A stretch of 64,000 nt of DNA from contig NC_092677.1 in assembly GCF_964355755.1 (NCBI RefSeq), forward strand, positions 9,632,601 through 9,696,600, written 5' to 3'. Of this stretch, positions 20,224 through 40,053 are shown piece by piece. Below the pieces are notes generated by a model. It ran no database searches, had not been told where the DNA came from, and saw nothing but the letters and a program-made list of their open reading frames with translations. Within the stretch, counting starts at the first letter, position 1. Every line of letters begins with the position of its first letter. A program made the translations under genes and the position numbers. Origin of the DNA: Antedon mediterranea. Taxonomy: Eukaryota > Echinodermata > Crinoidea > Comatulida > Antedonidae.

Positions 20224-22583
20224 ATGCGTGAAATCGTACATATGCAAGCTGGCCAATGTGGCAACCAAATCGGAGCTAAGGTATGTTTATAATTTTTGAT
20301 CTTTGTTAAATATAAATGACGTTTTACCGCCATTTTGAGTTCATTACCATTTTGCAGTTTACTTTGTTCTTTTTTTTATGTTATGTTCTCTTCTAAAATT
20401 TCGAAATGCAGATTACAGTAGGCCCTATTTCAAAATGTTTATGGTTAAGAGACGTATGTGTTTAACAGGGCTCATAAAAATGAAAAATATTTATTGAAAT
20501 AAAATTTGAATTGTAAATACGATTAGCCTCAATCTGAATGAACTTAACTGCTGAACTACTGAACTTAAAATTTTAAAAATATCTATTTATTATTATCTTC
20601 TCTTCTATTTACTGTACCGTACTTTTGATGTTACTTAAAGAGATTTAAGAGTATACTAAAGATCGTTACTCCATTGTCTGCTTCGTCCAGTTTGAAAATT
20701 ACCCGCGTCTCCATAGTAGCCGTGTATGACGTCATCTTTATAACGGTTTTAAGATGTGTGTATTCAAGCATATACACGTTCGATTTCCACATTAGAAAAT
20801 GTGTGCGAATTACTTTTTTACTTTAATCAACCGGACAACTGTGATTAGTACTGTACTTTAAAAATGTTTTTAAATATAAATCTTTAGAGGCATCCTTTAA
20901 CTATCACGTGTTCATAATGCGTTCATGCTTATTTTTTGATACCATGACGACAATTGTTAGGCATTGTTTGCCTGAAAAAGAGAAAATCAATATTAGGCCT
21001 ACAACAAATAATGGCAATTGAAAACAAAATCGATTTCAGTCATTGTTGAAAGAAAGAATATTTACCTTTCGCATTCCGTGGTGGTATTCCGAGGCAACAT
21101 CGTCATCATTGCATTCCAAAACAAACTACAGTTAATTAGACTATTTCTTTGGTTATTAATCGATTAATTAATAGAAATAATTTGAACTGTCTCTATTCAC
21201 TTCACCATGTATCTACACCATAGTATGTCTCTTTAAAGTTTCGGCAATTTTTATTTTCTTCTCCGTAGATTTTAACGCATAATATTTTTCTCTCCCCAGT
21301 TCTGGGAAGTGATCTCTGATGAACACGGTATCGACCCCACCGGTACATACCATGGAGACTCTGATCTTCAACTTGAAAGGATCAACGTCTACTACAACGA
21401 GGCCACTGGTGGAAAGTATGTGCCACGTGCTGTACTTGTTGATCTTGAACCTGGTACAATGGACTCTGTGAGGTCTGGCCCATTCGGACAAATCTTCAGA
21501 CCAGATAACTTTGTATTTGGACAGAGCGGGGCTGGAAACAACTGGGCTAAGGGCCATTACACAGAAGGAGCTGAACTTGTAGATTCCGTCTTAGATGTTG
21601 TACGCAAAGAAGCAGAAAGCTGTGATTGCTTACAAGGATTCCAACTTACACATTCCCTTGGTGGTGGTACCGGATCAGGTATGGGAACACTCCTCATCAG
21701 TAAGATCCGTGAAGAATACCCAGACAGAATCATGAACACATTCAGCGTTGTCCCATCACCAAAAGTATCAGACACTGTTGTTGAACCATACAATGCTACC
21801 TTATCTGTTCACCAGCTGGTTGAAAACACTGATGAAACATATTGTATTGACAATGAAGCCCTCTACGACATCTGTTTCCGCACATTGAAATTGACCACAC
21901 CAACATACGGTGACTTAAACCATCTTGTATCTGCTACCATGAGCGGTGTCACCACTTGCTTGAGGTTCCCAGGTCAATTGAATGCTGATTTGCGAAAATT
22001 GGCAGTCAACATGGTTCCATTCCCACGTCTGCATTTCTTCATGCCCGGATTTGCGCCATTGACCAGCCGTGGTAGCCAGCAATACCGTGCACTCACCGTC
22101 CCAGAATTGACACAACAGATGTTTGATGCCAAGAACATGATGGCTGCCTGTGATCCACGTCACGGCCGATACCTCACGGTTGCAGCAATTTTCCGTGGAC
22201 GCATGTCCATGAAGGAGGTTGATGAACAGATGCTCAACGTACAAAACAAGAACAGCAGCTACTTCGTAGAATGGATCCCCAACAACGTAAAGACTGCTGT
22301 CTGTGACATTCCACCAAGAGGCCTCAAGATGTCGGCCACCTTCATTGGTAACAGCACAGCTATCCAAGAATTGTTCAAGAGAGTTTCTGAGCAGTTCACC
22401 GCTATGTTCAGGCGAAAGGCTTTCTTGCATTGGTACACTGGTGAAGGCATGGACGAGATGGAATTCACAGAAGCAGAAAGCAATATGAACGATCTTGTGT
22501 CTGAATACCAACAATACCAAGATGCCACCGCAGAAGAGGAAGGTGAATTTGAGGAGGAAGAGGAAGGCGAAGAGGAGGCATAA
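20224..22583 (+). CDS. Beta-tubulin, copy 2 (two exons)
   Basis: Exons 20224-20280 and 21300-22583; 446 residues, with MREI, GGGTGSG at 140-146 and the [14 protein letters not shown] tail intact. Exon 2 is uninterrupted where copy 1 has an intron. Val381 replaces the Ile of the other copies; Val333 is shared with copy 1 (copies 3-6 have Ile333). Its exon 2 is much closer to copy 1 than to copies 3-6 at silent sites, yet its 3' UTR and downstream flank match copies 3-5. So its 5' half belongs to one lineage and its 3' flank is the one propagated through the array. The 1.0-kb intron is unlike that of any other copy. Confidence 0.97.
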
Positions 22584-22808
22584 ATGAACTTTTAATAACC
22601 TTGCACAAAAAAATCTTTCAATTTTTAATAATCCGTTTTGTCTTCAATGTAAACAATTTTAATCAAATGTACGTATTCTCAATATTATTAATATAAAGTA
22701 TTTATTTGTTTGCAGAGATAATTTCCAAATTACCGTACTTAAACCTACTACAGTAGTAAAAATATTTTCACTGTAACAATCATGAGTTTATCTGAACAGA
22801 ATATATGG

Positions 22809-22814
22809 AATAAA
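22809..22814 (+). terminator. Poly(A) signal of tubulin copy 2
   Basis: AATAAA in ATATGGAATAAATTTTG, about 225 bases after the stop. The same site is conserved in copies 3-5. Confidence 0.55.
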
Positions 22815-23140
22815 TTTTGTACTCGACAACAATTACTTTTTCGTTTTATTCATGATTTATCTGTTTGATGTCAGTAGACTAGTGAAATTTATGACATAGT
22901 TATGAGAGGCCGCCAGTACATACAGGCTAGGACCAAACGACTAATTTAACGATTGACGTGACGACGACCATGTTGGTAATGATACCAAGCAAGGCCAGGG
23001 GGATAAAATGACGATCACAACGTTAATTGATTGATTTAATGATGACATCATCGATTTAAGTATGACGATCAGCGTTGAGATGCCATATCAAGAAGGCGAA
23101 CAGATTTGAATAAAGACAAATGTTGCTTACTTTGCATACA

Positions 23141-37920: not shown

Positions 37921-37966
37921 ATTGGCCGATACACTGTGACGTCGTTCGTTCTCACACGTTTATTGG
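37921..37966 (+). promoter_or_regulatory. Promoter elements of tubulin copy 6 (CCAAT-CRE-CCAAT)
   Basis: ATTGG at 37921 and 37962 around TGACGTC at 37937. Confidence 0.55.
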
Positions 37967-38111
37967 CCAAGAGTCTGCTGCTCTCTACGACGGCTTCACA
38001 CAAACACTAAAACGAGGACAACGTAACTAAATTTTTAGACGGCGAATGTATTTTGTTGGTGCAATACATACATTTTAATTCTTCCTTAAATTGTCAAAAT
38101 ATTCAAAAATC

Positions 38112-40053
38112 ATGCGTGAAATCGTTCATATGCAAGCGGGTCAATGTGGCAACCAAATTGGAGCAAAGGTAACATTTGTTTTTATATGCTTTCCTTTTGA
38201 AAGCTAGCCTGGCCTAGGCCTAGCTAGTAGTTGTAGTCAACACAACATGACGAGACATGACGTCCAGCTCTGTCTGTTCTTGTTTGTTGTAATTGTGGTG
38301 TCGGGTGTGGTTGGAACATGTGATAACTGCCGACGTTCATATACCAATCATGGCGCAAAATTTGCAAATCACACTAGCCCTAGGGCCTAGTGTGTCCAGC
38401 CTAGGTAGTAGCAAGCATACACACTGACTAAATTCCGCATCTCGCACCACTGACTGGCTGCAAGCCCAGTACAGTAGGCCTAATAGAGAGTATAGTATGT
38501 GTGTAGGTTCTCGCTTTGGGTAAATTAATGTAAAAAAGCTATTGTTTTAAATGAGTTAGATATTAATTATCTTTTACGATTTCTTTAATTGCAAATTTTT
38601 GTACAAACGATATTTTTTTATTCTATTTTAAGGAATGCATATTTTATGTTTTGTTTGGCGTTGTAGTTCCAAATTTTGGTTTGGGTTGGACAGAAATTTG
38701 TACAATTCAAACTAAATTATTTTGATAATAAAATCACTTTCTATCAATAAAAATTATTTTTACTTTCAGTTTTGGGAAGTCATTTCAGATGAACACGGTA
38801 TCGACCCCACCGGTACATACCATGGAGACTCTGATCTTCAACTTGAAAGGATCAACGTCTACTACAACGAGGCCACTGGTGGAAAGTATGTGCCACGTGC
38901 TGTACTTGTTGATCTTGAGCCTGGTACAATGGACTCTGTGAGGTCTGGCCCATTTGGACAGATCTTTAGACCAGATAACTTTGTATTTGGACAGAGTGGG
39001 GCTGGAAACAACTGGGCTAAGGGGCATTACACAGAAGGAGCTGAACTTGTAGACTCCGTCTTAGATGTTGTACGCAAAGAAGCAGAAAGCTGTGATTGCT
39101 TACAAGGATTCCAACTTACACATTCCCTTGGTGGTGGTACCGGATCTGGTATGGGAACACTCCTCATCAGTAAGATCCGTGAAGAATACCCAGACAGAAT
39201 CATGAACACATTCAGCGTTGTCCCATCACCAAAAGTATCAGACACTGTTGTTGAACCATACAATGCCACCTTATCTGTTCACCAGCTGGTTGAAAACACT
39301 GATGAAACATATTGTATTGACAATGAAGCCCTTTACGACATCTGTTTCCGCACATTGAAATTGACCACACCAACATACGGCGACTTAAACCATCTTGTAT
39401 CTGCTACCATGAGCGGTGTCACCACTTGCTTGAGGTTCCCGGGTCAATTGAATGCCGATTTGCGAAAATTGGCAGTCAACATGGTTCCATTCCCACGTCT
39501 GCATTTCTTCATGCCCGGATTCGCTCCACTAACCAGCCGTGGTAGCCAGCAATACCGTGCACTCACCGTCCCTGAATTGACACAACAGATGTTTGATGCC
39601 AAGAACATGATGGCTGCCTGTGATCCACGTCACGGCCGATACCTCACGGTTGCAGCAATCTTCCGTGGACGCATGTCGATGAAGGAGGTTGACGAACAGA
39701 TGCTTAACATTCAAAACAAAAACAGCAGCTACTTCGTAGAATGGATCCCCAACAACGTGAAGACTGCTGTCTGCGACATTCCACCAAGAGGCCTCAAGAT
39801 GTCTGCCACCTTCATTGGTAACAGCACAGCCATCCAAGAGTTATTCAAGAGGATCTCTGAGCAGTTCACCGCTATGTTCAGACGAAAGGCTTTCTTGCAT
39901 TGGTACACTGGTGAAGGCATGGACGAGATGGAATTCACAGAAGCAGAAAGCAACATGAATGATCTTGTGTCTGAATACCAACAATACCAAGATGCCACCG
40001 CAGAAGAGGAAGGTGAATTTGAGGAGGAAGAGGAAGATGAACAAGAAGCTTAA
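38112..40053 (+). CDS. Beta-tubulin, copy 6 (two exons, divergent acidic tail)
   Basis: Exons 38112-38168 and 38770-40053; 446 residues. Met267 and Ile333. The body matches copies 3-5, but from 40037 the sequence changes: the tail ends EDEQEA (Asp442, Gln444) instead of EGEEEA, and the 3' UTR is unrelated to those of copies 2-5. The EGEF motif is kept. The acidic tail is where glutamylation, glycylation and motor/MAP binding occur, so this copy could differ in modification state. It is the downstream terminal member of the array. Confidence 0.97.

What the first reader, a model, noticed from the sequence alone, without database searches (positions are those of the whole stretch)
20224..40053. 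Chimeric tubulin array built by unequal crossing-over inside the coding region
Copies 3-5 join the promoter/exon 1/intron type of copy 6 to the 3' UTR type of copy 2. Copy 6 alone keeps another 3' end, and similarity breaks at 40037 within the acidic-tail codons. The simplest history is two neighbouring genes (one with the copy 2 3' end, one with the copy 6 promoter and 3' end) that crossed over unequally within the conserved exon, producing chimeric middle genes.
Basis: partly seen in the sequence, partly recalled or inferred. Interest (0 to 1): 0.7.

Follow-up and report, generated by a model that had tools for sequence, protein, structure and literature searches.

The report
Chimeric β-tubulin genes from unequal crossover
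Five neighbouring β-tubulin genes of an animal (probably an echinoderm) show a clear historical record of an unequal crossover inside the last 76 bases before the tail codons of two old genes' shared exon, which joined one gene's promoter to the other's tail and 3' end; the process is well known, but this is an unusually clean example.

Summary
Confirmed and largely explained. Copies 2-6 at 20224-40053 are intact two-exon β-tubulin genes. The four spacers (copies 2/3, 3/4, 4/5, 5/6) are one sequence, 1.5-3% diverged, and introns of copies 3-6 differ by 1.4-4%. Copy 2's 5' flank and intron, and copy 6's 3' flank, match nothing in the other copies beyond chance. In copies 3, 4 and 5 exon 2 is copy-6-like up to base 1191 and copy-2-like from base 1268 of 1284: one switch, inside 76 bp that are identical in copies 2 and 6, ending exactly at 40037. 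The two halves of the chimeras are about equally old (~2-3%), as one unequal crossover between gene A (copy 2) and gene B (copy 6) predicts, followed by amplification of the chimera to three. Known mechanism; new, well-resolved example. A related species could not be examined.

The parts
9982..11755 (+). copy 1: third old gene; exon 1 9982-10038, exon 2 split by an intron (10685-10807) at codon 130/131; own flanks; member of the older conversion group, not of the crossover
   Evidence: GT-AG intron at the same place as in the C2 gene L017; flanks unlike the others
20224..22583 (+). copy 2 (parent A): own promoter, exon 1 and intron (20281-21299); A-type tail GEEEA and 3' end
22584..24206 (+). 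spacer 2/3: A-type 3' UTR and flank through to B-type promoter; lacks the ~160-bp MITE of the other spacers
24207..28727 (+). copy 3 (chimera): B promoter/exon 1/intron, B-type exon 2 to base 1191, A-type tail
24480..27147 (+). younger insertion of dispersed transposons in intron 1 of copy 3; many copies 95-100% identical in the genome
28635..28710 (+). crossover interval in copy 3 (exon-2 bases 1192-1267); same interval in copy 4 32425-32500 and copy 5 36275-36350
28728..30504 (+). spacer 3/4, A-type 3' end to B-type promoter
30505..32517 (+). copy 4 (chimera)
32518..34278 (+). spacer 4/5
34279..36367 (+). copy 5 (chimera)
36368..38111 (+). spacer 5/6
38112..40053 (+). copy 6 (parent B): B promoter, exon 1, intron, exon 2, with its own tail DEQEA
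39961..40036 (+). the 76 bp identical between copies 2 and 6 (copy 2: 22491-22566) in which the crossover took place
40037..40425 (+). copy 6's own tail codons and 3' UTR/flank, not related to the other 3' ends

Best explanation
Two old neighbouring beta-tubulin genes, A (now copy 2) and B (now copy 6), with unrelated promoters, introns and 3' ends but a nearly identical exon 2, misaligned at meiosis. A crossover in the 76 bp before the tail codons joined B's 5' part to A's 3' part and gave A - (B/A chimera) - B. The kilobases of new homology then let the chimera amplify to three copies (3, 4, 5) by further unequal exchange. Shown: structure, switch point, about equal age of the halves, later topology switch in the spacers. 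Inferred: meiotic crossing-over as the act, and the A-B two-gene ancestor. Exon 2 of A, B and copy 1 had been kept similar by gene conversion (shown by the dS contrast and mosaic sites). Effect, inferred: three of the four genes with the B promoter now make the A-type tail (GEEEA) and carry the A-type 3' UTR; only copy 6 makes the DEQEA tail.
For: A - chimeras - B order with every spacer running from A 3' end to B promoter is what A x B unequal crossing-over gives. Single switch at bases 1191/1268 in copies 3, 4 and 5, 42-43 of 47 informative sites on the predicted side, permutation p 0.0006-0.0013. 76 bp identical between A and B there. Similar ages: copy 2 v 3-5 in the 3' flank 1.95-2.49%; copy 6 v 3-5 in intron 2.25-4.02%, promoter 1.67-5.33%, exon-2 dS 0.019-0.035, whereas A v B exon 2 is dS 0.165. 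Unrelated outer ends. Older conversion: third-position differences copy 1 v 2 are 12/19 in exon 1 and 33/428 in exon 2, p 8e-9; copy 1 v 6 10/19 and 42/428, p 8e-6; mosaic runs p 0.0004 with copy 4 and 0.011 with copy 6. Spacer topology switches from S2+S3 to S2+S5, perfectly segregated over 14 sites, p 0.001.
Against: No related species, no reads, no population data. Two sites before the switch (672, 1083) put all three chimeras with copy 2; they can be private changes of copy 6. Sites 1185 and 1191 could be private changes of copy 2, and 1268-1281 are private to copy 6, so on polarised sites alone the interval is bases 1114 to 1267. The A v B exon 1 contrast alone is weak (5/19 v 42/428, p 0.04).
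Confidence: 0.86

Rival explanations
1. The ancestor was a uniform array of B-promoter/A-3'-end genes whose outermost genes later got new ends: copy 2 a new 5' part and copy 6 a new 3' end, each by exchange with some other tubulin gene.
For: Would give the same present order; conversion between copies is evident.
Against: Needs two independent replacements and two lost donors; no donor of copy 2's 5' flank or copy 6's 3' flank was found in the genome search apart from dispersed repeats. Copy 2's exon 2 is far from the chimeras (38 private sites) up to base 1191 and close right after it, which fits one crossover.
Confidence: 0.06
2. The chimera arose without reciprocal crossing-over, by replication template switching or by a long conversion tract that copied A's 3' end and spacer.
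For: Final structure would look alike; conversion is active in this family, and the switch lies in 76 bp of identity.
Against: The in-register join inside 1.28 kb of homology and the addition of a whole spacer are the standard product of unequal homologous exchange; conversion alone adds no gene copy.
Confidence: 0.05
3. Part of the copy number is an assembly artefact (haplotypes laid in tandem).
For: Units differ by only 1.5-3%, which is within the allelic diversity I would expect of marine invertebrates (own knowledge).
Against: Units differ in many indels (10-21 events per pair) and in a 2.7-kb insertion, and a 3.8-kb unit is short for long reads; the chimeric structure needs only one chimera.
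Confidence: 0.03

Closest known systems
Hybrid genes from unequal crossing-over between paralogs (Lepore/anti-Lepore globins, opsin hybrids; own knowledge)
   Same: Parent - hybrid - parent order; hybrid has the 5' part of one paralog and the 3' part of the other; switch within shared coding sequence
   Different: Here present in the reference assembly, amplified to three hybrids, and the switch exchanges mainly the tail codons and 3' UTR because exon 2 was almost the same
Leishmania beta-tubulin loci (PMC1533823)
   Same: Coding regions concerted, perhaps by ectopic gene conversion, while non-coding regions are locus-specific
   Different: Trypanosomatid arrays lack separate promoters and introns (own knowledge); no promoter/3'-end chimera is inferred in the passages read
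Chicken beta-tubulin gene conversion (Sullivan, Lau and Cleveland 1985; own memory, not in the library)
   Same: Coding sequence homogenised while regulatory regions differ, so that one polypeptide has several regulations
   Different: Conversion only, no tandem chimeras

Membership tests
Product of unequal crossing-over between tandem paralogs | Hybrid gene lies between its two parents, which keep their own outer ends | tested here: met
Product of unequal crossing-over between tandem paralogs | Single in-register switch point within shared homology | tested here: met
   bases 1192-1267 of exon 2, 42-43 of 47 sites
Product of unequal crossing-over between tandem paralogs | Both halves of the hybrid have the same age | tested here: met
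   about 2-3% on either side, overlapping confidence intervals for most pairs
Product of unequal crossing-over between tandem paralogs | Unduplicated state in a related species or allele | not testable with these tools
   no eukaryote relatives or reads are held
Gene conversion (concerted evolution) of beta-tubulin exon 2 | Coding similarity out of line with exon 1, introns and flanks, with mosaic sites | tested here: met
Axonemal-type beta-tubulin | Tail motif EGEF followed by acidic residues | tested here: met
   EGEFEEE in all six copies (motif described in PMC2880298)
Axonemal-type beta-tubulin | Used in cilia or sperm tails | not testable with these tools
   best PDB match is the beta-tubulin of 8snb (recalled as sea urchin sperm doublets); no expression data

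The most novel reading that the evidence does not exclude
Crossing-over at the tail codons works as an isotype switch: it replaced, for most of the output of promoter B, a divergent tail (DEQEA) by the common tail (GEEEA) and moved the A-type 3' UTR under B control, and selection on this change or on dosage fixed the amplified chimeras.
Probability: 0.15. Interest if true: 0.55.

Novelty: new member of a known kind. Interest (0 to 1): 0.38.

Why it matters
It is a clean fossil of the two processes that keep tubulin families alike in protein but different in regulation: conversion limited to the coding exon, and unequal crossing-over that recombines promoters with tail codons and 3' UTRs. As promoter type and tail type are now uncoupled among near-identical neighbours, the locus could be used to separate the effect of the tail from that of expression.

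Tried and rejected
Looked for hidden homology between copy 6's 3' flank, copy 2's 5' flank/intron and the other copies: none beyond shuffles, except a MITE. Looked for donors of these ends elsewhere in the genome: only dispersed repeats and a 1.2-kb repeated element. Considered strong codon constraint instead of conversion: rejected because exon 1 and the paralogs elsewhere in the genome are saturated or nearly so at third positions. COX1 search to place the organism by mitochondrial code: no match in the assembly. Literature searches for tubulin chimeras by unequal crossing-over, for sea urchin tubulin gene conversion, for anti-Lepore fusions and for the species by chromosome number gave nothing of use.

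Full report
Setting. The window is C8:9632601-9696600 of a 354-Mb eukaryote genome in 18 contigs. The copy 2 protein is closest in the PDB to the β-tubulin of 8snb, which I recall as sea urchin sperm doublets, so the organism is probably an echinoderm; that is a lead, not a test. The genome has six β-tubulin genes in the window and four others: C1:36072214 (89% identical in protein), C2:35572980 (97%, with introns), C2:9238016 (75%) and C2:10153437 (64%). A large cluster of further tubulins, presumably α-type, is on C7.

Observation. All coordinates of the finding hold. Copies 2-6 each have a 57-bp exon 1 (19 codons), one intron and a 1,284-bp exon 2 without internal stops. The spacers 2/3, 3/4, 4/5 and 5/6 align along their whole length with 1.46-2.97% substitutions; introns of copies 3-6 align with 1.36-4.02%. 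So every spacer runs from the copy 2 type 3' end to the copy 6 type promoter. Copy 2's own 5' side and copy 6's own 3' side are not similar to the others by a sensitive search against shuffles. The 1.2-kb repeated element in copy 6's flank (about 40426-41654, also on C4 and C10 at up to 98-99% identity) starts about 370 bp after the stop and so does not explain the break.

Switch point. Copies 2 and 6 differ at 47 sites in exon 2 at which the chimeras have one or the other base. Copies 3, 4 and 5 agree with copy 6 to base 1191 and with copy 2 from base 1268, with 42, 43 and 43 of 47 sites on the right side of one change point (permutation p 0.0013, 0.0008, 0.0006). Between lie 76 bp that are identical in copies 2 and 6: 22491-22566 and 39961-40036. 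All three chimeras share this interval, so one founding crossover suffices. Polarised with copy 1, the certain interval is wider (1114-1267), as the sites at 1185 and 1191 are changes of copy 2 only.

Equal ages. If one crossover made the chimera, its left half should be as far from copy 6 as its right half is from copy 2. The values are 2.25-4.02% (intron), 1.67-5.33% (promoter) and dS 0.019-0.035 (exon 2) on the left and 1.95-2.49% on the right. By contrast, copy 2 and copy 6 themselves differ in exon 2 by dS 0.165 and in exon 1 by dS 0.70. Exon 2 (1-1191) puts copies 3-6 together with UFBoot 99.

Older layer. Copies 1, 2 and 6 have unrelated flanks and first introns, and exon 1 is saturated in copy 1 comparisons (copy 1 v 2: 12 of 19 third positions differ), but exon 2 differs at only 33-42 of 428 third positions (Fisher p 8e-9, 8e-6 and 0.04 for 1v2, 1v6 and 2v6). 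Sites shared by two of the three are clustered (28 runs against 40.6 expected, p 0.0004, with copy 4 as the B type; 34 against 43.1, p 0.011, with copy 6). Copy 1 alone keeps an intron at codon 130/131, at the place of the last intron of the C2:35572980 gene; its private differences crowd on the 5' side of that intron (13 in 336 bp against 6 in 948 bp, p 0.0001). This is what gene conversion limited to exon 2, and hindered by the intron, would leave. It also explains why A and B still had the homology to cross over.

Later steps. Quartets change along the spacer: ten sites join spacers 2+3 against 4+5 in columns 9-1252, four join 2+5 against 3+4 in columns 1525-1763, with one odd site (segregation p 0.001), and the intron agrees with the promoter. 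So at least one further exchange followed the founding event. Copies 4 and 5 are the youngest pair (three differences in exon 2; 0.35% in the 3' flank).

Consequences (inferred). B-type promoters carry two ATTGG boxes about 40 bp apart with a TGACGT between them; the copy 2 promoter does not have this arrangement, so A and B may be regulated differently. Copy 6 is the only gene with the tail ...[10 protein letters not shown]; copies 1-5 have ...[10 protein letters not shown]. All keep the EGEF axoneme motif described in PMC2880298. After the crossover, three of four B-promoter genes make the A-type tail and carry the A-type 3' UTR.

Comparison. Hybrid genes between their parents are a textbook product of unequal crossing-over (own knowledge), and concerted coding regions with locus-specific flanks are described for Leishmania β-tubulins (PMC1533823). 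I therefore call it a new, very well resolved member of a known kind.

Limits. No related eukaryote, reads or expression data could be reached, so the two-gene ancestor, the copy number in the population and the functional effect remain inferences.

Noticed in passing
L017 (C2:35572980) against window copies, exon-2 bases 1081-1230: Third positions of this gene on another chromosome differ from copy 1 at 5 of 50 sites here but 165 of 360 elsewhere (p 4e-7), while the C1 paralog shows no such dip (19 of 50); this looks like an interchromosomal gene conversion tract next to the crossover interval.
   Followed up: partly
29294-29455 and equivalents in spacers 4/5 and 5/6; 49320-49468: A ~160-bp MITE with ~30-bp inverted ends AGCCTTGTCTACACTATC and TTAA on either side; spacer 2/3 has TTAATAA instead, which could be an excision footprint.
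   Followed up: partly
40426-41654: 1.2-kb element with GCGGATAACC-like motifs at its ends; head-to-tail copies on C4 and C10, up to 98-99% identical to this single copy: a satellite-like unit that may be mobile.
   Followed up: no
24480-27147: Intron 1 of copy 3 holds at least two different young dispersed elements (about 820 and 920 bp, many genomic copies 95-100% identical), absent from the other copies and so probably inserted after the array formed.
   Followed up: partly
13493-16787: A cluster of ~345-bp repeats in direct and inverted orientation between copies 1 and 2.
   Followed up: no
C7:24363286-24435014: A cluster of more than ten tubulin genes, 39-42% identical in protein to the beta-tubulin query and presumably alpha-type; could be tested for the same kind of chimerism.
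   Followed up: no
codon 267 in copies 4 and 5: Both have Ile where all other copies have Met, the only amino-acid change among the three chimeras.
   Followed up: no
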